From Sinonovacula constricta (lineage: Eukaryota; Mollusca; Bivalvia; Cardiida; Solecurtidae), in contig CM017561.1 of the NCBI GenBank assembly GCA_007844125.1, forward strand, positions 64,461,256 to 64,525,255: a stretch of DNA of 64,000 bases, given 5' to 3'. The translations under genes were made by a program, and so were the position numbers. Numbering within the stretch: the stretch's first letter is position 1; the number at the start of each line of letters is the position of its first letter. The notes under the pieces are model-generated. The model saw only the letters and a list, made by a program, of their open reading frames with translations, made no database searches and had not been told where the DNA came from. Positions 2,765 to 52,000 of this stretch are shown piece by piece.

Positions 2765-4215
2765 AACAAGAGGGTCATGATGGCCCTTAATCGCACACCT
2801 GAGGACACCGGCTTTTAGTAGGCTCATATTCTGGCATCTAATTAAGAGCTATTTACTTTAGAAATCTTTGGTGAAGAATGGACCATTAGTGTGGCAACTG
2901 GGTTGATTACATTTCTAGAATTTTACCTAGTAACCTAATGAATACACATGACCCAGTTTTAAACATATGTAAGATTTCATACATGCAAACATTCTGGCCA
3001 AGTTTGGTGAAGATTGGACCATCAATGTGGCCTTTAAGTGTTTTCACAAGGTTTTTCTAAAATCTGACCTAGTTGCCTATTTTTTTTACCCCACGTGACC
3101 CAATAATATACTCATCCAAGATTTCATGCAAACAAACAATCTGATCAAGTTTGGTGAAGATTGGGCTATAAATGTGGCTTGTAGTGTGTTCACATGCTTT
3201 TTCTAAGTCTTGACCTAGTGACCTCTTTTTGGACCCCATATGACCCAGTTATGAACTTATTTAAGATTTCATGCAGGTAAACATTGTGATCAAGTTTGGT
3301 GAAGATTGTGCCATAAATGGGGCCTTTAAGTGCTTTCACAAGGTTTTTCTAAAATCTGACCTAGTTGCCTATTTTTTTTGACCCACCGTGACCCAATAAT
3401 ATACTCATCCAAGATTTCATGCAAACAAACAATCTGATCAAGTTTGGTGAACATTGGGCTATTAATGTGGCCTGTAGTGTGTTCACATGCTTTTTCTAAG
3501 TCTTGACCTAGTGACCTCTTTTTGGACCCCATATGACCCAGTTATGAACTTATTAAAGATTTCATGCAGGTAAACATTCTGATCAATTTTGGTGAAGATT
3601 GGGCAATAAATGGGGCCTTTAAGTGTTTTCACAAGTTGTTTTTTTTAAATCTGACCTAGTTACCTATTTTTGACCCCACGTGACCTAATAATATACTCAT
3701 TCAAGATGTCATGCAAACAAACAATCTGATCAAGTTTGGTGAAGATTGGGCTATAAATGTGTTCTGTAGTGTGTTCACTTGCTTTTTCTAAGTCTTGACC
3801 TAGTGACCTCTTTTTGGACCCCATATGACCCAGTTATGAACTTATTCAAGATTTCATGCAGGTAAACATTGTGATCAAGTTTGGTGAAGACTGGGCCATA
3901 AATGGGGCTTCTAGTGTGTTCACAAGCATTTTCTAAGATTTGACCTAGTGACCTACTTTTTAACCCCAAGTGAACCCATAACGAACTCATTCAAGATTTC
4001 ATGCAGTCACACATTTTATCCAAGTTTGGTGAAGATTTGGTAAAAAATGTGGTCTCTAGTGTATTCAAAAGTTTTTTCTGAGATTTGACCTTGTGACCTT
4101 CTTTTTGACCCGACGTGACCCAATTATGAACTCATCCAAGATTTCATGCAGACAAACATTCTGACCAAGTTTGGTGAAGATTGGGCTATAAATGAGGTCT
4201 CTAGTGTGTATCAGA
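2765..4215 (-). mobile_element. 145-bp tandem-core element, copy A (truncated)
   Basis: It begins with the family's terminal hairpin, aacaagagggtcatgatggc, and the 'aatcgcacacctg' motif. About ten tandem units follow, each with 'agtttggtgaagatt', 'tgacctagtgacct' and 'gatttcatgca'. Two unit types alternate between about 3000 and 3880, giving a period near 292 bp. The opposite terminus (gctcaggtgagctaaaa) is missing, so the copy ends by truncation near 4215. Open frames across it are by-products of the repeat. Confidence 0.85.
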
Positions 4216-7536: not shown

Positions 7537-8217
7537 AACAAGAGGGCCATGATGGCCCTTAATCGCTCACTTGATGACACAGGCTTTACGTAGGCTCAAA
7601 TCTGGCATCAAGTAATTAAGAGTTATTTACTTTAGAAATCTTTGGTGAAGATTGGACCATTAGTGTGGCCACTGGGTTGATAACATTTTCTAGAATTTTA
7701 CCAAGTAACCTACTGAATCCACATGACTCACTTCAAAACATATGTAAGATTTCATACTGGCAAACATGATGGTCAAGTTTGGTGAAGACTGGGCCATCAA
7801 TGTAGCCTCTTAAGTGTTTTCACAAGCTTTTTCTAAAATTTAACCTAGTGACCTACTTTATGACCCCTCGAGACCCAATAACGAACTCATCCAAGATTTC
7901 ATGTAGACAAACATTCTGACAAAGTTTGATGAAGATTGGCCTATAAAGAGGGCCTCTAGTGTGTTTACAAGCTTTTTCTAAGATTTGACCTTGTGACCTA
8001 TTTTTTGACCCCACGTGACCCAGTTACGAACCTATCTGAGATTTCATGCAAACAAACATTCTGACCAAGTTTGGTGAAGATTGGGCTATAAATGTGGTCT
8101 CTAGTGTGTTCACAAGCTTTGTCTAAGATTTGACCTAGTGACCTACTTTTTGACCCCACGTGACCCATTTACGAACTCATCTAAGATTTCATGCAGACAA
8201 ACATTCTGACTAAGTTT
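7537..8217 (-). mobile_element. 145-bp tandem-core element, copy B, left part
   Basis: It starts with aacaagagggccatgatggc and the unique flank that matches copy C at 49.6-49.8 kb. About four 145-bp units follow. It stops inside a unit at 8217, where the LINE begins. The remainder resumes at 17669, so the two parts are one element split by an insertion. Confidence 0.85.
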
Positions 8218-11316: not shown

Positions 11317-14300
11317 TTAGATTTTTGTTGACATCTGGGTGTTGTGAATAAATTCTCCCAGTGCCTTAAATATTGTTGTTTCTAGTAGTTTGGGTGGGTA
11401 GAGGATATTTGTCTTATTAAATACCAAATTTTCCGAAAGTAAAACTTGTTCTAATTTTATCCTCTCCCCCCTGTGGTCTTCGCATTGTAGCAACAGGTGT
11501 TTGTCATCAAACCGGACCCCGCACGTGGAACAATCTGGATTTAGGTTTAGGATATATTGGCCGGTACTGCCAGGTAAAAGAGTTGTGCCCAGTCTTAATC
11601 TTGTAATACTACGTTCAATTCGAAAGTTATTTGAGTAAATTGTTGGGCGTTTTAGTGATGGTATTTTTGACCGTCCATCATTGATTTTGTCATTAATGAT
11701 TTTACAGTGTTGTTCCCATTTATTTAATAAATTTTTCCTTGATATTGAATAGATTTCAGTTGGTGCGAGGCCCGTGTGATGTCCCACCTGCAAAGCGCTC
11801 AGTCCGGCTTTGGCAGCCCCGTCAGCCCTTTCATTTCCCGAGATCCCTACATGTGCTGGACACCATGTTAGAGTGACAATGTGGCCTTTCTCCATGCACT
11901 GGTTTGCTACAATTTTGATTTGATTGAGGAGGTCAGGCCTGGATCTGCTTTTATTATTTTCTATGGAAATAAGTGATCCTAAAGAGTCCGAAAAAATAAC
12001 AGATCTTGTTTTTTCTTGTTTGTTTATCCAGCTCAAGGCCTGTAGGATGGCATTCATTTCCGCTGTATAGATGGAAGTTTTGTCTGATATTCTTTCCGAA
12101 AATGTTAGATCAATAGAAGGAATGACAAAAGCGGAAGCCACCCTACCCTTTTGGGGGGTCTTTACTTCCATCTGTATATATTTTAACCCAGTTTTTGTAT
12201 TTACTGTCCAAATGCTCCAGTGTTAGCGCCTTGATTTTATTAGGGCAGTCATTTTTAGTGAACAGTTTTGTAAGACTTAGGTCGATCTCGGGTTTTTTCA
12301 GGGTCCACGGTTCCACCTCGGCCGGGCCGAGCGTCGCCACGCCGCTCTCTTCGACACCGCAGGCTTCCACCAGGTTTTGGGTATAAGCTCCAAAAGGGAG
12401 TGGGGGTGTCTTTTCAGATCCCCTCCTTGGTGTTTTGTAGAAATAGCCGGTGCCGAAGATTTGATTCACAGGGTTGTCCGGTTTGGTACGGGCCCTGGCC
12501 CAATATCTAATTGACTGATCATCCCTCCGCAGACCTAGGGGAGGCACCCCAGCCTCTTGTTCCAATATGCTTATAGGTGTGGATTTTAGGGCCCCTAGTG
12601 CTATCCTGAGAGCTTGATTTTGTAGGCTATCAAGCTTTTTAAGATTTGTTTTGGCTGCGATGGAGTAAATTTGACAGCCATAGTCAATTTTTGGACGTAT
12701 GAGAGACTTGTAGAGTAACAGGAGACTGTGTTTATCTGAACCGAAGTCAGTCCCTTTTAACATCCTCATTAAGTTCAAGTCTCTCTGGCATCTTTCAATG
12801 ATGTCTTGTATATGACTCTTGAATGATAACCTCCTATCAAGAGTCATTCCCAGAAATTTTACCTTATCTTTAAAATTTACTTTTTCTCCCCCTAAATATA
12901 CGTCCAAATCCATCTCTTGTTTAAGTCCGAAAAGAATGCCTACAGTTTTACTTTGTGAAATTTTGAATCCCCATTTTTTTGACCACTCCCAAATGGCGTC
13001 CAATCCGCTCTGGGCTTTTTTTCTGAGCGGTATTAACAAGGAGCCAGTTAGCCATGCGCTCGAATCATCGGCGAATTGGCTCACTACCAGTCCCGTCCCT
13101 TCGACACTGCTAGGAAGGTCATTTATAAGGAGCGAGAACAGTAGTGGGGAGAGGATCGAGCCCTGTGGGGTACCCCTCTTTAGGGTTTCATGATTTGATA
13201 GTGTGTCCCCCACTTTGACTTGGATTTTCCTATCATTTAAAAACGCTCTCAGGTACCTGTAGCAGTTGCCTGTTATACCATGGTCTTTAAGTTTAGTAAG
13301 AACTCCTGCATGCCATGTCAGATCAAAAGCGGCCTGCAGGTCGAGAAAGATAGCTGCAACATACCTTCTTCTATTCCTAGCATAGATTATGTCATGTTGC
13401 AGTCTAGCGAGCTGATCTAATGTGCTCCTACCTTTTCTAAATCCGGATTGAAAGGGATTTATAATGTTTTTTGATTCTAATAGATGTTCTAAACGAGCCT
13501 TAACCATCCCCTCGAGCAATTTCCCCGCATGGGATGTCAGGCTTATGGGTCTGTATGATTTTGGTTCATTTTCAGGTTTATTTAGTTTTAGTAAAGGTAT
13601 AACTATGGCTTCTTTCCAGGTTTCGGGGTATATCCCTGTCGTCCACACCATATTAAATAATTTAAGCCAAAGTTCTAGGGCTTTTTTGGGCATATTTTTA
13701 AACAACATGTAAGAGATCCTGTCCTTGCCCGTGGCTGAGCTACTCCTAGTTCTGATTACGTCTTCAAGTTCCGAAATTGAGAAGCTATTATTGAGAGGTA
13801 TGTTATTCTCTCCTGGGAGTTCTATTTTTTCTTTGTTTTCTGACTCAAATTTTGCCTGGATTTCTAATATTTCTGTAGAGATATTTGAGTCGCTGGAGAC
13901 ATCCTTATAATGAGAGACAAGTATGTTAGCTTTCTCTATGGGGGTGACTGCGGATGTCTTATTATTTTTAGTAGTGGTATGGGGCTATAAGAATTTCCTC
14001 GAATTCTGCGGATTTTTTTCCAAAAATCAATCGAATTCGTGTTGTGATTGCACGAATTGCAGAATTCCTCCCAGTCTTGCCTCTTGGCATCTAGTATGAC
14101 CTTTGTTGCGCTTCTCTGAGCCTCCATGTACCCATTATAGTTTTCTGGACATGGATTTCTCTTTAATTTATTTAGTGATTTTTTTCGCCCCTTGACTGCA
14201 TCATTACAAGTTTTGTTCCACCACGGGACAAGGCTTCTCCCATGTTTTTTTGTCCTACTGACCGGGATGCACTCCCCCGCAATAAATAGAAACTTTTCTG

Positions 14301-15122
14301 TTAAGAGCTGACAGTGCATGTCTACATTTGTCGAGTGTATTCCATCAGGGTTAATTTCCTCGCACATTTCTTTGAATTTTTCCCAATCTGCTTTTTTGTA
14401 GTTAAATTTGGTGTCAGAATTATTTTTTGGCTCTGGCATACCATGTTTTTGAATTGAAGTGATGATTGGGAAATGATCTGAACCCCAAGTATCTTCCATT
14501 ACTCCCCAGTCCGAAAATACCGAAAGTCTTGGACTAGCTATCGTTAAGTCTAAACAAGTCAACGCTTGGCCTACTCTGGTTGGACTGCCGTCATTTAGTA
14601 GGACTTTACCTGTGTCCGTTACCCAGTTCCAAACAACCTCCCCATGACGGTCAGTACTGGTTGAACCCCAAGCTACATGGTGGGCATTGAAGTCACCAGT
14701 TATGATGCTGTCCTTCTGCTCACCTGCCAAAAGTGAGTTTAATTTGTTAATTACTTCAGGGTTCCAGCCCCTGGAGTAAAGATTGACCAGAGTTAGAGGA
14801 AATTGTTCTAAATAAAGGTTGATTATTTGCAATTCAACCTTTGTTTCCCCGTTTTGATCCCTGATGTTTTCCACAGTGACCTCTGTACATAATTGATGGA
14901 ATCTTTAACATACACTATCAGCCCCCCACATACGTGGTTGTTTGTATTCAAATGATATTTGTAGATCCCCTTGTATCCAGGTATTTTTTTAATTGCGTTT
15001 TTTGGTAATTTTGATTCCTGGATGCATATGACATGAATATCATGTTTGTCTAAATATTCCAAAATATTTGCATGTTTATGTGCAGTTAACCCCCCAGCAT
15101 TAAAGGATATTACGTTAAAGTT
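11317..15122 (-). pseudogene. LINE ORF2: APE endonuclease, reverse transcriptase, RNase H (frameshifted)
   Basis: ORF2 encodes the enzyme that nicks target DNA and copies the element RNA into it. The endonuclease occupies about 15122-13980. It shows QESKL near 15015, GDFNAHH near 14690, and a later SDHFPI. The reverse transcriptase (about 13950-12400) shows SYRPISLTS, GFRKGRSTLDQL, FLDLQAAFD, the GTPQGSILSPLL block and the catalytic FADD near 13065. The RNase H (12190-11317) shows TDGSKD, AEMNAI, FSDSLGS and NERADGAAK, which supply the four acidic residues. The reading frame breaks near 14870, near 13970 and at about 12155 in a C6/A4 run, so this copy cannot make the full protein as written. 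No clear ATG precedes the endonuclease; the frame opens just past the ORF1 stop, which suggests coupled initiation. Confidence 0.9.
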
Positions 15123-15132
15123 TCGATTGAAT

Positions 15133-17026
15133 TTATCTGCGGTTGGATGTCAGTCTTCCTTTACTAGGAATTTGGTTTTTAACTTTTCTGGGGGTTGCGG
15201 GCCTCTTCAGGGGTGTTCTTAATAGCCCGGTCGCGAACTCGGTGGGGATTTTACGGGGGGTCCCAGGAGCATGGTTTGATTTTGAGGAGTGAAGTGAGTC
15301 GTGGATTTGGAGCTTCTTTATGATCTGTTGTTTTAAAAATTTATCAAGGTTGACACCTGTTCTAATGGTGGTTTTTGCTCTAATGTCCTTGATAATATTT
15401 AACAGATCATAAATAGATATTGTTAATTTGATTTCTTTATGGTTAATGTCAATATTGTACCCAGTCCCCTTTTCTTCTTGCAGAACTTTAATATTAATGG
15501 GAGAGGACTGGGTTGCTCTATCCACTCCTCTAGAAGGTAGGGGTGTCTCTGTTGTCACTGGGGGGGGTTTTGTGGGTGTCACCTCACCGTTTTTCATTGG
15601 TTGAGGTGATAATTCCACTTCCCCTGTGGCAATAGGGACAACCTTGTTGGTAGGCAGGGACTCACCATCCAGACAGTCTTCGACTTCGTCGGGATCTGTC
15701 TCAGATTCGGAGTCGCTGCTGCTATCCGACAGGGATGATATTGAAATAGACTCATCCCCGTCCGACAGCAGGACTACGTCGTCCTCTACCACCATTTTGG
15801 TTTCTATTTCACACTCCTCAATTGTTATAGGGTGAGTGTGCACGGAACCGTCGGTTTTGTTAGTTTGGTAGCCGGGAGGTTTCCCCCCCCCGGTCACACC
15901 TCCCTAACCCCGAGGGCCGCTGAGGTCCCCCCTGGGGCACGGAACACAGAATCTGGAAACTTCCCCGTCTTCCGTCTCCTACGTGCCGCCAGAGTTTACC
16001 CTCAGCGTCCCTCACCAGGCGGTTTATTGGCCTTCCGGGGCCCTCCACCCTCCCCTGGGACTGGGGAGGGCTTGGGTTTCCCACGGGGGCCTGACCTGGC
16101 GACGGAGTGCGTGCACTGTTGTATAGGTGGGAAGAGGTGGGCGGCACTTGTGAGTTGGCTTTCTGCCACCCCACTCCTTCTCTCCTCATAAGCCAAGTCA
16201 CTTTGGCTGCCCTTATGTAAGAGGGGCAGCCCCTATAGCTCGTTGTGTGGGCGCCTTGACAATTTGTGCACTTGTTGAACTTCGCTGTGCACTGTTTAAT
16301 GCCATGCTCCCCCCCGCACTTTGCACATTTCAGTTGCCCCCGGCATCTTTGTGATTTATGGCCGAAGCCCTGGCATCTGAAGCATTTTAGTGGAGGGGCT
16401 GCATACTCTTGAACGGGAAATAATATGTCAGTTTCCCGTATTTTGACATGAGTTGGCAGCTCCCTCCCTGTAAATTTTAATAAGACTGCTGTTGACTCCC
16501 TGCCGAATTTGTTTTTTAGGCGGTATGCGGATGTTATGATTTGGCTTGGGGAAGTGGATGCAAAGTGTTCAGGTATTGTGTCTATGTCTGTGTTGAGGGG
16601 GATATTGTGAATCACCCCCTCGCTGTGTGATCCGGCAGTGAGCTCCGCAGCTTTAATTCCCACCCCCGCCAAAGATAAAGGCTTTTTCTTCAGGACGCCT
16701 ACCAGAGCCTCGGCAGACGCCATCTCTAAAAGGTAGGCCCCAGACGCAAGGGGTACTACCCTTTTGACACCTTTGCCAATTTCAGTATTTATAGCCCTGG
16801 CCATTGTGAATAATGATAAATCACCCAGATTTTTTTCCCCACCCTCCGCCCGAATAATCAATTTGTGTGGCCAGGTGCTTTTGTTAATATAATGTGACTG
16901 ATTTGGAGTTCTGGGTCTCCCTAGCAAAGGTGAGAGATTTTGCCGATCCCCACCCCCCTGCGCTCTAGTGGTGGACTGGAACATAACTCTCTTGTAGTGT
17001 TCCACAAAGTGGAAATAATATAACAC
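15133..17026 (-). pseudogene. LINE ORF1: gag-like nucleic-acid-binding protein (frameshifted)
   Basis: The first open segment, 17026-15860, encodes 388 residues. It ends its conserved part with three zinc knuckles: CFRCQGFGHKSQRC, CAKCGGEHGIKQC and CTNCQGAHTTSYRGC. These are typical of gag-like ORF1 proteins that coat LINE RNA. The second segment, 15897-15133, encodes an acidic Ser/Asp-rich stretch and a basic Pro/Lys-rich C-terminus. The two overlap by 38 bases across a run of ten C at about 15885, where one base of slippage would join them into one protein of roughly 630 residues. The break may be a true mutation or a homopolymer read error. Alternatively the downstream segment is a separate small ORF. 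Confidence 0.85.
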
Positions 17027-17668: not shown

Positions 17669-18276
17669 GACAAACATTCTGACCAAGTTTTGTGAAGATT
17701 TGGCTATAAATGTGGCCTCTAGTGTGTTCACAAGCTTTTTCTAAGATTTGACCTAGTGACCTACTTTTCGACCCCACGTGACCCAGTTACAAACTCATCC
17801 AAGATTTTATGCAGACAAACATTCTGACTAAGTTTGGTGAAGATTTGGCTATAAATGTGGCCTCTAGTGTGTTCACAAGCTTTTTCTAAGATTTGACCTA
17901 GTGACTTCTTTTTGAACACACGTGACCCAGTTACGAACTCATCCAAGATTTCATGTAGACAAACATTCTGACCAAGTTTGGTGAAGATTGGGCTATAAAT
18001 GTGGTCTCTAGTGTGTTCACAAGTTTTTCCTAAAATTTGACCTCGTGACCTACTTTTTGACCCCAGGTGACCCAATAATGAACTCATCCAAGATTTCATG
18101 CAAACAAACATTCTGACCAAGTTTGATGAAGATTGGATAAAAATTGTGGCCTGTAGTGTGTTCACAAGGTAAATGTTGACGACGGACGACGAACGACGGA
18201 CGAAGGATGCCGGACGACGGACGAAGCGGTATCACAAAAGCTCCCCTTGAGCACGTTGTGCTCAGGTGAGCTAAAA
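17669..18276 (-). mobile_element. 145-bp tandem-core element, copy B, right part
   Basis: This continues the element interrupted at 8217 with about four units. It ends in the family's second terminus: a GACGAC-rich tract (18176-18225), then 'ctccccttgagcacg' and 'ctcaggtgagctaaaa', which form a hairpin. The open frames reading through the units are not genes. Confidence 0.85.
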
Positions 18277-19874
18277 ATGATATGATAAAATGTTTGATAC
18301 AGCATATACATGTACATGTTGTATAAAGTGAGACACTACCTCTTGGGCACGCGGGCCACAACTGTGTTATGTATATATATACATAGTTAGAGGCAATTAC
18401 AGATCATTTAGTTTAATGTTGGTTAAAAAGTTGCTAACAGCTGCAACATGCTTGATTTGCCAAGAAAATCTTTTACCATAACTATAATCTAGTAATCCAA
18501 TTTGTAAATCGCATCGACATAATTATGGACATATTGACAACATCGAACTAATCATTTGTCGGAGGAAGACCCCAGACTTAAGTCTGGGTACAACCACCGG
18601 CGCCACCACAAGAGAGGTGTATTAACGGACGTCACAATGATTTAACAATGTTAGCTACTTCAGCAAAAATATTTTAAAAAATGTTTATTTGACCAACTGT
18701 TTTGAATGCAACTTAACATTAAAGACTGAATAAAATTAGATAACCTGTTTTCAATGGGAAGAAATCATAGTCTAAAAGACATAACGTAAAATGATATTAA
18801 CCTGTTCAATAATTGGGCCATGAAATAGCATGTCGTACATTTTTGTTACATTACACATATACAATTATAGCAAAACTGGCAATGTCCAGCTAATTTTTGG
18901 TATAGAAAGAGCTAAGTGCTCGGCCACTGGCATCCCGCCAGGCATGAGGACTTAAGACATAATTATCATAATGCTTCTACTGTGACAAAAGTAGTAAAAT
19001 GAAGTTACAATAATTTGATGAGTTAAAAAAAATAATTTTGCTAAATCCATTTTGTTTGAGTTTTACAAAGACAAATCCACATACAATGTAATATGTTGCT
19101 ATTTAAAGTCATATATTTAAAGTTATAAATGTGGATTTCCATGTAGTAATAAAAATGATAATCACCTTCAAACAACTGAATTAAAGCACATATTCATTTC
19201 AAAAAGCCCGTATGTGCCAAAAGTTTTCATAGAAGAGCAACAAATAATAAAATTATAAAGTTTATGAATAAATGAATATTTTCAAATGAAACAACTATTT
19301 TTATGGAAGTTTTTTTAAACTATGTACCTACAAAGTAAGCATAATAACACAAACACAAATATGAATAAATGTCAACAAGGAGAATAATAAAGACTTTATA
19401 AGGACAGTTAGCTTTTGTACAAAATAATCATAGCAACATGAACATTTCATGTAAAGATTATTGCTCTCATAAATTATCATAACAAATGATTATTTCACAT
19501 AATTATTATAACAGTTATAATGATATACTAAGCATTTTTAAATGTAAAGCTGTTTTTGTAAAATGGATCAAATACACTCTTTTTTCAACATATATCTTAT
19601 AATGGCTCTATATGTATAATATATTCTAGTTTATGACCATATGTTCTAATAGAGTTCCAAATAGATAACAATAATAACTAGGATAATCACACCTGATAAA
19701 AAGACCTTAGGTTTATACACTTCACTGAAAATACCTTATTAAAGCTCATATATATTTTACAATAAAGTTTCATAAAGATATTTGTAACTTATTTTAATCT
19801 AATAATAATAATCACTGATAATGTGAGAGATTTAATTTTTGTAATAATAAAGCATAGTGGATTCTCATGACAAT
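18277..19874. other. No gene recognised; may include 3' UTR of the ApoL-like gene
   Basis: Very AT-rich DNA downstream of the minus-strand gene. A second copy of the motif gggtacaaccaccggcgcca lies at 18563-18603 beside the palindrome cccagacttaagtctggg. I see no other structure. Confidence 0.5.
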
Positions 19875-21872
19875 TTATTGTTTCTTTGATTTTAAGTCAA
19901 CCACCATCTCCAGCACAGCGTGTCTGAGGAAACCGAGAACCCGCAAGTCATGATCAATTGTGCACCTGCTGACATGATCCATGAGAACTTTGGAAACAAA
20001 GTAGTCCATGTTTTGTCTTGCTATAACCATCTTTTTCTCTTTGTTCTGCTCAGAGCTTGTGAATTCAATGGTTCCCGGATTCTTCTTGCACCAAACCTCG
20101 ACTGTATCCAGTTTTGCCAGAGGTTGTAGCTCGCTATGATGATCTTCCCAGTACATGTCATGCTTACACTTATTCCATTCTACCTTCAAACACTTTTCAA
20201 CATTTTCACTGAAATGCTCACAGAGCTCAAACATTTTCAAAACTATTGTATCAGATGAGCCATGTCCTTGTGGTTTATAAACAATATACTCTGCCACATC
20301 CTGAAACGGAACAAATTTTCGCAGTGTTGACAATGAAACATGGCGATTGACTACTTTTGAGGCATGAACCTTCATCAGGCGTTCTTCATTCTGAAAATCC
20401 CCAGCAATGATTAATTTGCGTTGCGCATGATTCTTAAGGAAAGAAGCCACATCCTTCATAAATAGTGCCTTTTCTGCTTTATCTGAAGGACTCAAAACAT
20501 TGGCAATGCAAAATGACTGACCATCCATCTGGATGTTGACTATCAGACACCGTCCTCTAAGATTTTTATCTTGGTCAGCTGCCGATTCCTCTTGTGGGAT
20601 TATATTATCCATAAATTCTTTTGTCATCAGAAAGCAAACTCCACTTTCTTTTTCAGGATCAGTACTCTGAAGGTACACTCCAAATGTTGCCCACAAGGCA
20701 GGATCACTCATGGCTTTCATGTTCTGCAGGCAAACAACTGACTTTGGTCCCACTTTCCAAGCAGCATAGAGGATTATTGTCAGGTATGTGAAGAGAGACA
20801 TACATGTACCTTTACAGTTCATCAAGTAACAGGACAATTTGTCTTTGGCTTTGGGTGGAGGAGGCTGCTGATAATGCATGCATACAACAGACTGAATGTA
20901 TGGTAGTATTTGTTTAGCTGGAAGCATCCTCTGCAGAATTTGGTCCAGAATGTGTTCAAGTTGCTGTTCACACCCCTCACTCTTGATCATCTTCACAAAA
21001 GTCAGGAAACTTTTGAACTCATTGACTGCCTCGTAAAGTTCATGTTCTATCTCTTTTACTTCTTTCTCAAGTTGTTCTACCCTCAGCCTTAAATCTTGTG
21101 ATGATTCATGTCCTTCTCCTGATTTCAGGCTAATTGATGCTGTGACAAGGTCATATATATTTAACGGCAAAAGAGCAACATTTATAATTAATCCAACTTT
21201 TGCAAAACGAGATACTTTAGTACCTCCTTTCGAAATTCCCTTTAAATGACCTGACAATTTATTCCCTGGTTTGCTTTTCACATGTTTGCTAATAACACCG
21301 TGTACCTTCTTCAAATTATCTAATTTAATAGCTGCCATAGCTTTTTTCTGGAAAGAATCCTTTTCACCATCTTTACTCACTACTGGGATAGGGTTTGGGT
21401 TGGGTTCTGGGGATCTGGACATTTCTGGTTCTTCATTGGACACATCATCTTCCTCAATTTCAAGTGTTTCTAAATATGATAAAATATCAATCTCCGTACC
21501 TATCAGAATATCTAGCAGTTTCTTAATTCCAAGTGTGTTCTGGTGGTCTTTCTCAATTGTTTCTTCAATCTCTTTCATAACCTTGGATGTTTTCAAGTCT
21601 TTAACAGCTTTGGATATGAAACTTACACCCTGGCTTGCGACAGCAACACCCGTGCCTGCAATAACAGCTGAGGCTCCCGCAGAGAATGGAGCTAATGCAG
21701 CACCTATGCCAACAATTATCCCACATAAGGACAAAGTTGAGCCAGCTACCTGACCTTTTTTTGATGCCGTATGATATCTATCAAGCTCATCTGCAAGATT
21801 CTTCAGTTCCTGAACAGTCAAATGCCGTTGCTTTTTCCACTCATTAAGCTTTGCAATTATGGTTTCATCCAT
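19875..21872 (-). CDS. Apolipoprotein-L-like protein fused to a degenerate EEP (LINE-endonuclease-like) domain
   Basis: A 665-residue uninterrupted frame. Residues 1-40 are helical and charged. Residues 43-80 form a Gly/Ala-rich hydrophobic hairpin (GIIVGIGAALAPFSAGASAV) like the pore region of apolipoprotein L proteins. Residues 226-280 hold a second hydrophobic segment and a coiled coil (LRLRVEQLEKEVKEIEHEL), as in the ApoL C-terminal part. From about 345 the chain follows the strand order of EEP endonucleases: LSCYLMNCKG, VVCLQN (382-384, where the enzyme has QE), SGVCFLM, the CLIVNIQMDG strand, and LIIAGDFQ (491-494, where the enzyme has GDFN). No SDH motif is visible. Key residues are therefore substituted, and catalysis is unlikely. 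ATG at 21872 has a good context (aacaATGG), and an in-frame stop lies upstream. A strong acceptor at 21922 suggests an upstream non-coding exon. AATAAA overlaps the stop codon. ApoL-type proteins act on membranes; the role of the fusion is unknown. Confidence 0.85.
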   Translation of the reverse strand: MDETIIAKLNEWKKQRHLTVQELKNLADELDRYHTASKKGQVAGSTLSLCGIIVGIGAALAPFSAGASAVIAGTGVAVASQGVSFISKAVKDLKTSKVMKEIEETIEKDHQNTLGIKKLLDILIGTEIDILSYLETLEIEEDDVSNEEPEMSRSPEPNPNPIPVVSKDGEKDSFQKKAMAAIKLDNLKKVHGVISKHVKSKPGNKLSGHLKGISKGGTKVSRFAKVGLIINVALLPLNIYDLVTASISLKSGEGHESSQDLRLRVEQLEKEVKEIEHELYEAVNEFKSFLTFVKMIKSEGCEQQLEHILDQILQRMLPAKQILPYIQSVVCMHYQQPPPPKAKDKLSCYLMNCKGTCMSLFTYLTIILYAAWKVGPKSVVCLQNMKAMSDPALWATFGVYLQSTDPEKESGVCFLMTKEFMDNIIPQEESAADQDKNLRGRCLIVNIQMDGQSFCIANVLSPSDKAEKALFMKDVASFLKNHAQRKLIIAGDFQNEERLMKVHASKVVNRHVSLSTLRKFVPFQDVAEYIVYKPQGHGSSDTIVLKMFELCEHFSENVEKCLKVEWNKCKHDMYWEDHHSELQPLAKLDTVEVWCKKNPGTIEFTSSEQNKEKKMVIARQNMDYFVSKVLMDHVSRCTIDHDLRVLGFLRHAVLEMVVDLKSKKQ

Positions 21873-21921
21873 TGTTACTTGTATTTTTTATGTCTTTAAC
21901 TTCTGCTAGGACTATTCAAAT
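21873..21921 (-). other. Probable 5' UTR exon segment of the ApoL-like gene
   Basis: On the minus strand a pyrimidine-rich tract ending in ttctttcttgcag stands just before 21921, 49 bases ahead of the start codon. This is a good splice acceptor, implying that a non-coding first exon lies further upstream. That exon was not located. Confidence 0.55.
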
Positions 21922-22127
21922 CTGCAAGAAAGAAAAAATATTTTATATTCCCATTAAATGAATTAGGCTAACAGAACATGTAAAGAACATTACCTGTCAC
22001 TCTAAGACTTAGACTTCTTGTTGCAAGTAAGTACATGCCCAGTCTTCATGCAAGAGATAAACATTTATATCCTATCCTATTATACATTGCAGTTCAACAA
22101 AGTTATACTTTTTCACAATAAACAAAA

Positions 22128-23228
22128 AACAAGAGGGTCAAGATGGCTTGAATTGCTCACCTGTGGACCAGACATTCATTTTGCTTTAAAATCTAACCAC
22201 AAGACTAAAGTGCACAACTAAGCATTTGGCATGAAGTGACCATAATTGATTTGTTAAGCAAATCCTTGCACATGTTAACCCACCAAGATATAAATGCAGA
22301 CAAAGATCCTGATAAAGTTCTGTAAAGATTAGATCAAAAAACTCTTTTCGGGTATTCACAGGGTTGTTCAATGATTAGTGCTAGTGACCATCTCTGTGCT
22401 TTTTGATCCTATCTAGAATTATGAACCCATCAAAGAGTTCATGTAGACAAACATTCTGACCTAGTTTCTATAAAAACTGGACTATCAATTTTCACAAGTT
22501 TTTTTTCCCTAAAATTTGAATTAAAGACTTTTCGACCCCACGTGACCCAGTTACAAACTCGCACAAAATTTCAGGCAAAAAAGCATTCTCACTTATTCTG
22601 GTGAGGATCAAGCCATACTTGTTGCATCTAGTGTGTTCACAAAGTTTTTCTTGAATGTGACTTAGTGAATAACTTTTTGACCAAGCATGACCCAGGTACG
22701 AACTCATCCAAGACTTTATGTTTACCCACATTCTGACCAAGTAGGTAAAACAGCTACACCCTTGACGGCCAAGTTATTTGACGATTCAAAATGTTTTTAA
22801 CAATTTTGATACAAGACCGTCAAAGGAATACATAAATCAAATATCAAAAATTTAGCTAAGTTTTCCTTTGTAGCCATATATGAAAAATGGCCACGCTCCT
22901 GGCGGCCATGTTTTTGTAAGGATCAGATCATTTTAACAATCTTCATACAGGGCCGCCCAAGGAACATGTGTACCAAATATCAAGGCTCTGGCTCTTGCTG
23001 TTTTTGATAAGAAGATTTTCCTATAGGACCATATATGGAAATGGCCATGTTTTTTGACAGATCACAATTATTTGAACAATGTTTTGTTCCCTCTGCCTAT
23101 TTAAGCTTCTGAGAAAGTTTGGCTGAATTCGGCTCATTGGTTTCAGAGATGTCATCTGAAAATGTTGATGGACACGAAATGCCGGATGCTGGGCGATCCC
23201 AATCACAAGCTCAGGTGAGCTAAAAATG
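22128..23228 (-). mobile_element. Relative of the 145-bp tandem-core element (copy D, diverged)
   Basis: The left end, acaagagggtcaagatggct with gctcacctgtgg, and the right end, caagctcaggtgagctaaaa, match the termini of copies B and C. Inside are about four diverged 145-bp units (22280-22745). A different segment follows (22746-23160) with 'ggccatgtttttgtaagg'-type motifs repeated twice. It is an older or chimeric family member with no coding capacity. Confidence 0.75.
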
Positions 23229-46040: not shown

Positions 46041-49000
46041 GTATGTTATTTGTCATAATTTGCAACTTTTGACCCAACAGAAAGACTGTGCAAGATTTGG
46101 TTTTATATCAACCCTATTGTCAGTTTCCAATAAGAAGTGAACGCCAGACGTACTTACTCGTAATAGCTCCATACAATTTTACCATGTAAAAGTAACCCTT
46201 AGTTTATTGATTTTAAGAATACATTTTTAAGATTTATGCACTGTTGATAAATGCAATATAACAAAGTGTAAACAATAAAACTTTCTTGTTTAACGTCACT
46301 TGATTCTCCAAAAGCTCTGCCTTATGTCACGGACGAGAATCACGACTTCTGACGACTTGGCGGCACAGTAAACTAAAACACAGCCATGTCCTTAACTGTC
46401 AATATACCAGTTGTCTTAAGCATGTATAATAAACCCTTATTGTTAATTTAAACACGGGTTGTTGTGTAAGTCATTATTGTAAAGTATAATTTGCAGATAC
46501 GTGTTTGACAGAAAGTTCTACAATGACTCCGATTTGCCGTCAACCATTAGACCACCAAGCTTCCTAAAAGTTCAGGTAACGTGTCATACTTCATATTTTA
46601 ACGTGATTTTGAAAAACCTTTTTTTCCAAAACCTTAAACCCAAGATTGCAAGATCATGAGTTCGGTTCGACATACTTTGCACAAGAAAAATGCTTTAAGT
46701 AAATGCAAAATATTACTTGTTTTTTCTTCTTGGATGCGATATGTTTTTACACACAGATATATTTATTTTAACATCCATTATTAATGAGCTGAGCTGTAGT
46801 AATCTAGGATTGTAACAACCTGGTCACTAGCGCAGATTAGCGCTGATTCTTACCAGAACAAAAGAACATATTAGTGTTCAACATTTTTTCTCAGATAAAT
46901 GCTAAATTAAGTGACTGTGTTTTACTTTTTCACCACAGGATGGTATCGATGATAGTATATTCTTTCTGGGACCCTCAGGCTCTGGTGTAAGTTTTCACCA
47001 TCATGCGGACGCATGGAACGGAGTCATTTTTGGGAAGAAACGTTGGTTTCTGTATAGGCAGTCTAAGACTCCACCTGGAGGCAAGTTATTGGCTTTTTTA
47101 ATACTTTTTAGCTCACCTGAGCACAACGTGCTCAAGGGGAGCTTTTGTGATACCGCTTCGTCCGTCGTCCGTCGTCCGTTGTCCGTCGTCAACATTTACC
47201 TTGTGAACACACTAGAGGCCACAATTTTTATCCAATCTTCATCAAACTTGGTCAGAATGTTTGTCTGCATGAAATCTTGGATGAGTTCATTATTGGGTCA
47301 CGTGGGGTCAAAAAGTAGGTCACTAGGTCAAATTTTAGGAAACACTTGTGAACACACTAGAGACCACATTTATAGCAGAATCTTCACCAAACTTGGTCAG
47401 AATGTTTGTCTACATGAAATCTTGGATGAGTTCGTAACTGGGTCACGTGGGGTCAAAAAGTAGGTCACTAGGTCAAATCTTAGAAAAAGCTTGTGAACAC
47501 ACTAGAGGCCACATTTATAGCATAATCTTCACCAAACTTGGTCAGAATGTTTGTCTGCATGAAATCTTGGATGAGTTCGTAACTGGGTCACGTGAGGTCA
47601 AAAAGTAGGTCACTAGGTCAAATCTTAGAAAAAGCTTGTGAACACACTAGAGGCCACATTTATAGCCGAATCTTCACCAAACTTGGTCAGAATGTTTGTC
47701 TACATGAAATCTTGGATGAGTTCGTAACTGGGTCACGTGGGGTCAAAAAGTAGGTCACTAGGTCAAATCTTAGAAAAAGCTTGTGAACACACTAGAGGCC
47801 ACATTTATAGCATTATCTTCACCAAACTTGGTCAGAATGTTTGTCTGCATGAAATCTTGGATGAGTTCATTATTGGGTCACGTGGGGTCAAAAAGTAGGT
47901 CACTAGGTCAAATTTTAGGAAAAACTTTTGAACACACTAGAGACCACATTTATAGCCCAATCTTCACCAAACTTGGTCAGAATGTTTGTCTACATGAAAT
48001 CTTGGATGAGTTCGTAACTAGGTCACGTGAGGTCAAAAAGTAGGTCACTAGGTCAAATCTTAGAAAAAGCTTGTGAACACACTAGAGGCCACATTTATAG
48101 CCCAATCTTCACCAAACTTGGTCAGAATGTTTGTCTACATGAAATCTTGGATGAGTTCGTAACTGGGTCACGTGGGGTCAAAAAGTAGGTCACTAGGTCA
48201 AATCTTAGAAAAAGCTTGTGAACACACTAGAGGCCACATTTATAGCATAATCTTCACCAAACTTGGTCAGAATGTTTGTCTGCATGAAATCTTGGATGAG
48301 TTCGTAACTGGGTCACGTGAGGTCAAAAAGTAGGTCACTAGGTCAAATCTTAGAAAAAGCTTGTGAACACACTAGAGGCCACATTTATAGCCGAATCTTC
48401 ACCAAACTTGGTCAGAATGTTTGTCTACATGAAATCTTGGATGAGTTCGTAACTGGGTCACGTGGGGTCAAAAAGTAGGTCACTAGGTCAAATCTTAGAA
48501 AAAGCTTGTGAACACACTAGAGGCCACATTTATAGCATTATCTTCACCAAACTTGGTCAGAATGTTTGTCTGCATGAAATCTTGGATGAGTTCATTATTG
48601 GGTCACGTGGGGTCAAAAAGTAGGTCACTAGGTCAAATTTTAGGAAAAACTTGTGAACACACTAGAGACCACATTTATAGCCCAATCTTCACCAAACTTG
48701 GTCAGAATGTTTGTCTACATGAAATCTTGGATGAGTTCGTAACTAGGTCACGTGAGGTCAAAAAGTAGGTCACTAGGTCAAATCTTAGAAAAAGCTTGTG
48801 AACACACTAGAGGCCACATTTATAGCCCAATCTTCACCAAACTTGGTCAGAATGTTTGTCTACATGAAATTTTGGATGAGTTCGTAACTGGGTCACGTGG
48901 GGTCAAAAAGTAGGTCACTAGGTCAAATCTTAGAAAAAGCTTGTGAACACACTAGAGGCCACATTTATAGCAGAATCTTCACCAAACTTGGTCAGAATGT

Positions 49001-52000
49001 TTGTCTACATGAAATCTTGGATGAGTTCGTAACTGGGTCACGTGGGGTCAAAAAGTAGGTCACTAGGTCAAATCTTAGAAAAAAGCTTGTGAACACACTA
49101 GAGGCCACATTTATAGCATAATCTTCACCAAACTTGGTCAGAATGTTTGTCTGCATGAAATCTTGGATGAGTTCGTAACTGGGTCACGTGGGATCAAAAA
49201 ATAGGTCACTAGGTCAAATCTTAGAAAAAGCTTGTGAACACACTAGAGGCCACATTTATAGCCCAATCTTCACCAAACTTGGTCAGAATGTTTGTCTACA
49301 TGAAATCTCGGATGAGTTCATAACTGGGTCACGTGGGGTCAAAAAGTAGGTCACAAGGTCAAATCTAAGAAAAAGCTTGTAAACACACTAAAGGCCCTAT
49401 TTATAGGCCAATCTTCATCAAACTTGGTCAGAATGTTTGTCTGCATGAAATCTTGGATGAGTTCGTTATTGGGTCTCGTGGGGTCATAAAGTAGATCACT
49501 AGGTCAAATTTTAGAAAAAGCTTGTGAAAACACTTAAGAGGCTACATTGATGGCCCAATCTTCACCGAACTTGACCATCATGTTTGCCAGTATGAAATCT
49601 TACATATGTTTTGAAGTGAGTCATGTGGATTCAGTAGGTTACTTGGTAAAATTCTAGAAAATGTTATCAACCCAGTGGCCACACTAATGGTCCAATCTTC
49701 ACCAAAGATTTCTAAAGTAAATAACTCTTAATTACTTAATGCCAGATTTGAGCCTACGTAAAGCCTGTGTCATCAGGTGAGCGATTAAGGGCCATCATGG
49801 CCCTCTTGTTTTAAGATGTAATTTTATGAGTCTATGCTCTCATTAACTAACCATTCGTAATAAAGAATGGCCCAAATCATGGAATTAAAGGGACAGTATC
49901 TCAAACTAATATAATTCAAGAACGATGTCTGAAACTTTCCCCCATATTGTAAGTGTCTTACAATAATATGACAAGCAAGTGTGAACAAAGAAATCAGTCT
50001 TTATTGTGCTGTTTTTTATGAAAATGATGACTTGAATTTAACACCTGTATTCACCAACCATTCTTAAGCCTAAGCCATGACTATAGCCCAAGTCACAATA
50101 TTCATACCAGCAAAAATAAACTCATTTATGAAGTTTCAATGTGATCTTAAGCTCAAAGTAGCAAAGTGAAAGTGTCATACACAAATACAGACATGTAGCT
50201 AAATACATAATGAAGATATTGTGGAAATCCATGACTTGTGCTAGTCTCACTTAAGAACGGTTGGTGAACATAGGCCTAAATGTGGTATCCGACAGTTTGT
50301 CTATATCAAATACATATTACAATATGGAAATACTACTTTGGGGGATGTGGGCATAGTTTTATCATAAACGCATACTTTAATCGATTTTTATTGTTAGGCA
50401 GAACTAATCGCGAAAAAATCACTATGAATGTGTATTCTTTCCAACTGTATAAAAAGCTCGATGGTCTTCTCTACTAAAAGTAGACATCGATGTCAGAGCA
50501 GATTACCCGGATGACTATAAGTGATCTCAAAAGTTTTAAAAATAACTATCTCTGCAAGGTGGCTCGGATAGGAAACACCTGTTTGCAATGATGAGTGGTG
50601 ATTTATGATTGACTGTTCTCCCAGTTTTAGAACATCAATAAACATCATATTGAAGGCCCTTTTCAGGTAACAATGACTTATTTGTTTTGGGGGGAAAAGA
50701 AATGTTGGTTTAAAATTTCGGATACCAGCTTTAAGTCATGACTTGAGCTTAAGAAAGTTTTGTTAATAAAAGCTTACGTGTCTGCTGCAAGTGTTTTCTG
50801 AGAAGCTTTAGTTGTTATAATGACAGATACTATTTTCAAGTATTCATGTGTATATGTATTTTTGGCAAATCGATTTTTAATTTTAATCAAGCGAACAAGA
50901 ATAAAATGCATCTACGATTCTTTTTGCAAGAGAAAGTACAGCAGACGTACAACATTGTATTAAATTTCTTCAATCTTATCCACCCACACCATTAGTTTTC
51001 ATATTCAGGCTGACCAAGAATTATTTTTGTAAAAATACACTGTTGTTGTATGATATTCTGCCAGGTGTGTACCCGGGCCTTACAACGTTACAATGGTTGG
51101 ATAAACTGTACCCGCGACTGGAGGATACTGAGAAGCCAGGGGAATGTGTTCAGAATGCAGGAGAAATACTTTATGTTGTAAGTAGAATAGGCATGAGTTG
51201 CACAAACTATGTGTTTAGTGAAAGAATAGCGAATTATGATTGTAAGTCACACTTGGTTCGGAATGCGGGAAAAAGACCATATGTCTTGGTAGAAAAGTCC
51301 TTAAATAAATTCGTGAGGTGCACAAAATTAGTGCTTAGTGAAAAAAGAGCGAATTATGATAACAAATCCCCGCACTTGTCCACAATGTAGTGAAAATACC
51401 GTGTCCTTAATAGAGCAGCTTAATAATTGCTGTAAATTACTAACAATCCAAGTTGCACAAGCGTAATCTATTTACAGATAACCAAACATAGTGAGATTTC
51501 ATCAGGCCTGTACTTTTTGTACATGGTATAAGATTCTTATTTGAGCAATACAGCATATCTACTGACATTGTTATACTATAGACACTTCTTTAAAGCTGTT
51601 TTAATTCTAAAACCTTTTTTTTTCTTGCTGGAAACAACTTAAGGTTGGGGTATGTTTTATGTAAATGCGGTGAATGGTGTTTCCCGCCAAAAAAGGGTTA
51701 ATCTGTCTTCTGAAGCGTTCTTCAAATACTCCAATCAAGTCTGGACCCCATTGGTCCGCCTTTGCTCTGATCTGTTTTCTTTTTAAGCATGTTTGCTTGT
51801 GGACATTATTATTGGCATATGCATTATTTACTTAAATTTACTTGTCAACGGTACCGCCCCCACTTCATGTGGATTGACGGATAGACAACCTAAAGCCGCA
51901 CACTGAGCTGTTGGATGAAGTGGTCGCTTTTATCAGATAAGCTATCTGAAAGGCAAGTGGCAGTTTGTCCAATTCAAAGATAAACAAGCTTAGTTCAGAT

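What the first reader, a model, noticed from the sequence alone, without database searches (positions are those of the whole stretch)
19875..21872. ApoL-type membrane protein fused to a dead LINE-like endonuclease domain
The first 280 residues look like apolipoprotein L. The rest follows the L1/Tx1-type EEP strand order, but LQE has become LQN (382-384), GDFN has become GDFQ (491-494), and SDH is absent. The frame is intact over 2 kb with a good start and an upstream splice acceptor, so it reads as a selected host gene and not a decaying transposon. A catalytically dead EEP captured by a pore-like protein could be a sensor, adaptor or immune effector. That role is inference.
Basis: partly seen in the sequence, partly recalled or inferred. 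Interest (0 to 1): 0.8.

Follow-up and report, generated by a model that had tools for sequence, protein, structure and literature searches.

The report
ApoL protein fused to retrotransposon pseudo-nuclease
In this genome a small gene family joins an apolipoprotein-L-like membrane protein to a DNA-cutting domain of the jumping-gene (LINE) type that has lost key cutting residues, while a protein from another, unnamed source has the same two parts with those residues still in place.

Summary
Observation confirmed. The minus-strand ORF 19875-21872 encodes 665 aa. Pfam ApoL is above its cut-off. Pfam gives no EEP hit, but the C-terminal half looks EEP-derived on three lines: it matches the EEP of P0003, an 860-aa ApoL-EEP protein of unknown species, at E 1.5e-6 (best of 5,000 shuffles 0.83); the family profile matches LINE endonucleases of the same genome at E 4.5e-6 (best of 100 shuffled profiles 0.01); and the 50 Foldseek rows shown for each of two low-confidence models are EEP enzymes. 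P0003 keeps the catalytic motifs; the window protein has LQN and GDFQ.

The genome holds at least five intact members, three of type A and two diverged type B. Coding indels are in frame and omega is 0.26-0.34 over residues 229-665. Residues 1-228 show no constraint, and 341-520 alone is not significant.

Best reading: a host gene in which a LINE-type endonuclease was joined to an ApoL protein and became a non-catalytic module. The role (membrane effector with a binding tail) is inferred. Literature listings seen showed no such fusion.

The parts
19875..21872 (-). Coding sequence, 665 aa plus stop, single uninterrupted frame
   Evidence: paralogues with intact frames
21537..21836 (-). ApoL N-terminal match (residues 13-112)
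   Evidence: PF05461, 45.7 bits, cut-off 25.9
21612..21755 (-). Hydrophobic, hairpin-like stretch (residues 40-87)
   Evidence: 19-residue hydropathy above 1.4; residues 50-121 resemble two alpha-pore-forming toxin structures weakly (E 0.005)
21189..21512 (-). Fast-evolving segment (residues 121-228): 0-1 synonymous against 19-25 non-synonymous differences per pair of close copies
20973..21203 (-). Second hydrophobic motif (LLPLNIY) and predicted long helix (residues 224-300), shared with P0003 and type B
20388..20840 (-). EEP-derived domain, first part (residues 345-495)
   Evidence: phmmer to P0003, hhalign to LINE endonuclease profile covering residues 343-494, Foldseek
20721..20729 (-). 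LQN (382-384) where P0003 has LQE and the LINE endonucleases compared have LQE (2 of 10) or LQD (8 of 10)
20391..20402 (-). GDFQ (491-494) where P0003 and 9 of 10 LINE endonucleases compared have GDFN; GNFQ in the two closest paralogues
19908..20012 (-). Probable last part of the EEP-derived domain (residues 621-655), with D623 and H651 retained
   Evidence: hhalign over 622-644, E 0.002, above 200 shuffles; extension to H651 from the alignment
21922..21940 (-). 3' splice site before the coding exon (a 5' untranslated exon upstream is presumed)
   Evidence: present in three copies
17745..22356 (.). Block duplicated in the neighbouring copy at C7:64452616-64457208 (94.8% identical); 17745 is the edge of the stretch compared

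Best explanation
A host gene of a small, mostly tandem family makes an ApoL-like membrane protein whose C-terminal half descends from the EEP endonuclease of an L1/Tx1-type retrotransposon. Shown: the two-part architecture, the intact frame, the duplications, purifying selection on residues 229-665 as a whole, and a protein from another sequence source with the same order of parts and the nuclease motifs kept. Inferred: (1) one ancestral fusion, since the window EEP is closer to P0003's EEP than to the LINE endonucleases compared; (2) loss of metal-dependent cutting in this genome, since the acidic residue of the LQE motif is replaced in the five intact copies found; (3) the mechanism: the ApoL half inserts in or remodels membranes, as vertebrate ApoLs do, and the EEP remnant serves as a non-catalytic binding module (nucleic acid or protein partner) that places or triggers it, most plausibly in defence. 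My odds: anatomy and capture about 0.9, selected host gene about 0.8, loss of catalysis about 0.8, defence mechanism about 0.35. (Host-gene odds and the overall figure were lowered slightly on re-check, because the first EEP half alone is not significantly constrained.)
For: ApoL above Pfam cut-off, and over profile positions 65-294 of 298 in paralogue L004. EEP: P0001 C-terminus against P0003 EEP E 1.5e-6, best of 5,000 shuffles 0.83; reverse direction 1.2e-6 against 2.8. Profile of the five intact copies against 10 LINE endonucleases of this genome: E 4.5e-6, score 45.6, best of 100 column shuffles 24.4; with P0003 added 2.1e-8, score 60.5 against 21.1. P0003's EEP matches LINE-1 endonuclease structures (E 2.8e-5) and LINEs of this genome. 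Fold search: the 50 rows shown for each of the two models are EEP enzymes. Shared fusion origin: 25.8 bits to P0003 against at most 14.8 to the 10 LINE endonucleases (19.5 against 12.1 for copy L003). Selection: omega 0.34, 0.26, 0.29 over 229-665, Fisher p 0.011, 3.5e-5, 2.1e-4; 14 of 14 pairwise coding indels are multiples of three against 9 of 43 in the flanks (pairs are not independent). Defence, by analogy only: an ApoL transcript heads the list of non-shared haemocyte transcripts in a mussel (PMC4581086 Table 3, passage; whether it has an EEP is not known), and vertebrate ApoLs act in infection (PMC13177371, passages).
Against: No Pfam or PDB hit for the window EEP itself; P0003's own Pfam EEP match is below the cut-off (22.5 against 24.5). 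As a single sequence the window C-terminus barely rises above shuffles against LINE endonucleases (best E 0.002; best shuffle 0.025, which beats 2 of 10 LINEs), and type B alone is not detectable. The profiles are thin: hhalign kept 2 of 5 family rows, and two of the 10 LINE sequences are identical. Both AlphaFold models have mean pLDDT under 40, and their alignments held P0003, which carries a clear EEP. Selection: omega for the whole frame is 0.65-0.78 with intervals including 1; for 341-520 alone 0.46-0.59, intervals including 1; for 341-665 p 0.069, 0.0087, 0.021. Between the window copy and L002 residues after 228 differ more than the 3' flank (0.020 against 0.009). L002, L003 and L005 are below the ApoL cut-off (21.6, 23.8, 25.4 against 25.9), and L003 lacks the N-terminal hydrophobic peak. 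No expression data and no experiment.
Confidence: 0.6

Rival explanations
1. Recently dead gene cluster: the copies are decaying duplicates whose frames happen to be open still.
For: Three of the eight family places found are fragments or broken (L006, L007/L009, L008). Residues 1-228 show no purifying selection, and omega over the whole frame is 0.65-0.78 with intervals including 1. L002 keeps only a short part of the hydrophobic stretch and L003 none.
Against: Five intact frames of 590-665 aa in two subfamilies about 30-32% identical. Omega 0.26-0.34 over 229-665, and 0.41 (p 0.017) over 345-590 of type B. 14 of 14 pairwise coding indels in frame.
Confidence: 0.12
2. The C-terminal half still has a nuclease or phosphatase activity through altered residues, so it is an active divergent EEP and not a dead one.
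For: N352, D492 and, by weaker alignment, D623 and H651 are retained in the window copy. The second half of the domain is poorly aligned, so substitutes cannot be excluded. 8 of 10 LINE endonucleases compared have Asp, not Glu, in the LQE motif, so that place tolerates change.
Against: The acidic residue of LQE/LQD is Asn in the three type A copies and Ser in both type B copies; D492 is Asn in the two close paralogues; type B has no GDFN.
Confidence: 0.15
3. The C-terminal half is not EEP-derived; the resemblance is convergent or a by-product of thin profiles.
For: No Pfam or PDB hit without the P0003 bridge. Type B alone not significant, single-sequence LINE match marginal. Low model confidence.
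Against: Significant in both directions to P0003 and as a profile to LINE endonucleases without P0003 (score 45.6 against a best of 24.4 in 100 shuffles). Same order of parts in P0003. Only EEP enzymes among the 50 Foldseek rows shown for each model.
Confidence: 0.05
4. The ApoL-EEP genes are passengers of, or were made by, a mobile element that still spreads them, so the copies reflect transposition and not selection for a host role.
For: One type B copy sits on another contig (L005, C1), a fragment on a third (L008, C5), and repeat arrays and a LINE lie close by.
Against: No reverse transcriptase match in the five intact proteins. The contig-7 copies lie in one cluster on one strand, as tandem duplication gives. 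None of the LINE endonuclease loci fetched carries an ApoL frame within the roughly 1.5 kb held on each side. Element ends and target-site duplications were not looked for.
Confidence: 0.08

Closest known systems
Apolipoprotein L family (Pfam PF05461)
   Same: The N-terminal region of the window protein matches above the curated cut-off; L004 over nearly the whole profile; a hydrophobic stretch, then a second motif and a predicted long helix.
   Different: A further ~320 residues of EEP descent, which vertebrate ApoLs lack (recalled). Two close type A paralogues and one type B copy fall below the cut-off.
LINE-1/Tx1-type retrotransposon endonuclease (EEP; the clade label is recalled)
   Same: Motif order from the N motif to GDFN; profile match E 4.5e-6 over residues 343-494.
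   Different: LQE/LQD to LQN, GDFN to GDFQ, probably Asp of SDH lost; no reverse transcriptase; about 65 more residues between GDFQ and the next motif than in the LINE endonucleases.
Bovine Bcnt protein that includes the endonuclease domain of the RTE-1 retrotransposon (p97Bcnt; Iwashita et al. 2003, seen only as a reference-list entry in PMC7284322; further detail recalled)
   Same: Host gene that took up a LINE endonuclease domain.
   Different: Unrelated host partner (Bcnt, not ApoL) and RTE-1, not L1/Tx1.
TRADD-N immune proteins of marine animals fused to retrotransposon parts (Kaur et al. 2021, PMC8195603; passages seen)
   Same: Immune-type domain joined to retrotransposon sequence, lineage-specific expansions.
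   Different: TRADD-N, not ApoL; a term search of the text found no ApoL, apolipoprotein or EEP.

Membership tests
Apolipoprotein L | Pfam PF05461 above curated cut-off | tested here: met
   Window 45.7 bits against 25.9. Also met by L004 (38.0) and P0003 (50.3); not met by L002 (21.6), L003 (23.8) and L005 (25.4).
Apolipoprotein L | Hydrophobic, membrane-inserting hairpin in the N-terminal half | tested here: inconclusive
   Hydropathy peak at about 40-87 in the window copy, P0003, L004 and L005; short in L002, absent in L003. Insertion itself not tested.
Apolipoprotein L | Channel, fusion or lytic activity | not testable with these tools
   Needs protein.
EEP (endonuclease/exonuclease/phosphatase) superfamily | Sequence homology to EEP domains | tested here: met
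   E 1.5e-6 to P0003 EEP; family profile E 4.5e-6 to LINE endonucleases, above 100 shuffles. Pfam EEP models themselves gave no hit, and type B alone none.
EEP superfamily | EEP fold | tested here: inconclusive
Active EEP nuclease | Acidic LQE/LQD residue, GDFN, SDH/TDH (roles recalled from LINE-1) | tested here: not met
   LQN, GDFQ and, by weak alignment, LRH in the window copy. P0003 has LQE, GDFN, RLD and TDH.
L1/Tx1-type LINE | EEP followed by reverse transcriptase | tested here: not met
   The frame ends after the EEP-derived part; no reverse transcriptase hit in Pfam.
Domesticated transposon-derived host gene | Purifying selection and in-frame indels | tested here: met
   Met for residues 229-665 taken together. 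Not seen for residues 1-228; not significant for 341-520 alone.
Domesticated transposon-derived host gene | Orthologues at the same place in other species | not testable with these tools
   No other eukaryotic genome could be searched; P0003's species and place are unknown.

The most novel reading that the evidence does not exclude
Some animals carry a class of immune proteins, not yet named as far as I saw, in which an ApoL pore or membrane-remodelling unit is fused to a captured L1/Tx1 retrotransposon endonuclease. In some species the nuclease is intact, giving a two-headed effector that both breaks membranes and cuts nucleic acid, or is armed by nucleic acid. In this genome it has become a pseudo-nuclease that senses foreign or retrotransposon nucleic acid and releases a fast-evolving ApoL head.
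Probability: 0.2. Interest if true: 0.88.

Novelty: new variant of a known kind. Interest (0 to 1): 0.62.

Why it matters
Few host genes are known to have taken up a retrotransposon endonuclease (recalled). Here the same fusion exists with its motifs kept in one source and lost in another, so the change from enzyme to binding module can be tested directly. Joining it to ApoL, a membrane-active family tied to immunity in vertebrates, suggests how a transposon part could steer a membrane effector. A more constrained C-terminal part beside a fast-changing ApoL part gives a testable prediction on which part meets the pathogen.

Tried and rejected
Led nowhere: Pfam and PDB searches with the window protein for an EEP hit. 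Protein search with the two-sequence alignment A2, which returned only P0002 and not even P0003, a member of the query (only the 7,993 candidates sharing most words were scored). Search with P0003, which added one trout protein with an ApoL domain; I saw no EEP in it by eye and did not scan it. Relatives in viral contigs and in prokaryote genomes: none confirmed. VIA-align: I recognise 49 of the 50 rows shown as EEP enzymes by title or recall; one row (3l1w) is titled functionally unknown; nothing is claimed about other folds.

Literature: 10 searches were answered. bore on an ApoL-EEP fusion; none of the titles and abstracts listed describes one, but the lists were capped (12 to 15 rows, except with 4 and with none), the library holds open-licence PMC papers only, and I made term searches in five papers, with passages shown in four, and read none whole.

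Considered and rejected: that EDHH (576-579) is the SDH motif; the later segment fits the LINE motifs better, though single-sequence searches of that tail did not beat shuffles. Also that P0003 is only a mis-joined gene model, since the window protein has the same order of parts within one frame.

Limits of the selection test: the three close copies are mosaics. Their 5' flanks differ by 0.26 (window against L002) while the 3' flanks differ by 0.009, which suggests gene conversion. The p values are per pair, uncorrected and not independent, and the regions were cut after seeing the sequences.

The survey of all ApoL genes in this genome (PF05461) did not complete, so the count of eight places rests on the search with the window protein and is a lower bound.

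A softshell clam genome paper (PMC7531772, term search only) does not mention ApoL and was not matched to this assembly.

Full report
What is there. The minus-strand ORF at 19875-21872 encodes 665 residues from an ATG. About fifty bases upstream lies a good 3' splice site that is present in the two closest paralogues too, so the whole protein seems to sit on one coding exon behind a 5' untranslated exon; no transcript was available to show it. An AATAAA word overlaps the stop codon; its use is untested.

The ApoL half. Pfam ApoL matches residues 13-112 at 45.7 bits against a cut-off of 25.9, and a second weak stretch matches the end of the profile. The type B paralogue L004 matches over profile positions 65-294 of 298. 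Residues 40-87 form a hydrophobic stretch; a second one at 224-247 is followed by a predicted long helix. Against this, L002, L003 and L005 fall below the Pfam cut-off and L003 has no N-terminal hydrophobic peak.

The EEP half. Direct searches of Pfam and PDB gave nothing. The key was P0003, an 860-residue protein of unknown species with ApoL above cut-off, a Pfam EEP match just below cut-off (22.5 against 24.5 bits) and a match to LINE-1 endonuclease structures at E 2.8e-5. The window protein aligns to it along its length. Its C-terminus matches P0003's EEP at E 1.5e-6 where the best of 5,000 shuffles has 0.83, and at 1.2e-6 in the reverse direction with the best of 5,000 shuffles at 2.8. Without P0003, a profile of the five intact copies matches 10 LINE endonucleases of this genome at E 4.5e-6 (score 45.6; best of 100 column shuffles 24.4), and with P0003 added at 2.1e-8 (60.5; best shuffle 21.1). 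The match covers residues 343-494. Limits: the profiles are thin (hhalign kept 2 of 5 family rows; two LINE rows are identical), the window sequence alone is marginal against LINEs (best E 0.002, best shuffle 0.025), and type B alone is not significant. A last part of the domain appears at 622-644 (E 0.002; score 21.5 against at most 16.5 in 200 shuffles), but single-sequence searches of this tail fail.

Catalytic residues. Against LINE and P0003, the window copy has LQN where P0003 has LQE and the LINEs LQE (2 of 10) or LQD (8 of 10), and GDFQ for GDFN; N352 of the first motif is kept. The two close paralogues have GNFQ. Type B has LRS and no GDFN. P0003 has LQE, GDFN, RLD and TDH. The roles of these residues in LINE-1 are recalled. 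The five intact copies found have thus lost the acidic residue of the second motif.

Family and selection. The window protein finds eight places in its own 1.22-Gb genome, itself included (a lower bound): three intact type A copies (window, L002 92%, L003 89%), a type A fragment (L006), two intact type B copies (L004 in the same cluster, L005 on contig 1; about 31%), a broken type B copy (L007/L009) and a fragment with stops on contig 5 (L008). The contig-7 members lie within 120 kb on one strand. Among the three type A copies, residues 229-665 have omega 0.34, 0.26 and 0.29 (Fisher p 0.011, 3.5e-5, 2.1e-4). Residues 341-665 have 0.39, 0.31 and 0.37 (p 0.069, 0.0087, 0.021); of these, 521-665 have 0.32, 0.16 and 0.31, while 341-520 alone have 0.53, 0.59 and 0.46 with intervals including 1. 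The whole frame has 0.78, 0.69 and 0.65, intervals including 1. Residues 1-228 have 1.41, 1.72 and 1.62 (p 0.39, 0.21, 0.23), and 121-228 have 0-1 synonymous against 19-25 non-synonymous differences (p 0.017, 0.023, 0.036). Type B has 0.64 overall (p 0.06) and 0.41 over 345-590 (p 0.017). All 14 pairwise coding indels are multiples of three against 9 of 43 in the flanks. The copies are mosaics, and between the window copy and L002 the coding part after residue 228 differs more than the 3' flank (0.020 against 0.009); so the tests are per region and not independent.

Origin. The window EEP scores 25.8 bits to P0003 and at most 14.8 to the 10 LINE endonucleases tried; for copy L003 the figures are 19.5 and 12.1. 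This favours one old fusion. P0003's own EEP scores up to 59 bits to those LINEs, which I call Tx1-like from recall. No LINE locus fetched carries an ApoL frame in the stretch held, and no ApoL-EEP with intact motifs was among the 53 scored matches of P0003 in this genome, of 412 candidates.

How it may work. Vertebrate ApoLs act on membranes during infection (PMC13177371, passages), and an ApoL heads the non-shared haemocyte transcripts of a mussel (PMC4581086, Table 3 passage). I infer a membrane effector whose EEP remnant binds nucleic acid or a partner. The more constrained part would then be the docking or sensing part and the fast-changing ApoL part the one in conflict. None of this was tested.

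Novelty. LINE endonuclease uptake by a host gene is known (bovine Bcnt, reference title seen), as are immune genes fused to retrotransposons in marine animals (PMC8195603, passages). The listings of seven open-library searches showed no paper on ApoL with EEP. I rate it a new variant of a known kind.

Noticed in passing
window 11317-17026, minus strand: A LINE-type retrotransposon in several frames: RNase H, reverse transcriptase and an endonuclease frame (Exo_endo_phos_2) by Pfam, and an upstream frame with zinc-knuckle-like cysteines (by eye; no Pfam hit).
   Followed up: partly
window 2948-4209, 7813-8217, 17669-18168, 47200-49601: Arrays of a ~145-bp repeat unit at four places with similar consensus or its reverse complement by eye; 22283-22742 resembles the array near copy L002 at about 70%. 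One array lies at the edge of the block duplicated with the ApoL-EEP gene.
   Followed up: no
L001, L002, L003 (C7:64436502-64483127): The three close copies are mosaics: the 5' flank of the window copy differs by 0.26 from L002 while the 3' flank differs by 0.009, as gene conversion or unequal exchange would give.
   Followed up: partly
window 54006-56793: Large tandem arrays with 58-60-bp and 33-bp units and strong G/C strand asymmetry.
   Followed up: no
P0003 (unknown species): ApoL joined to an EEP with its motifs kept, with a run of acidic residues between the two halves; a candidate active nuclease fusion.
   Followed up: partly
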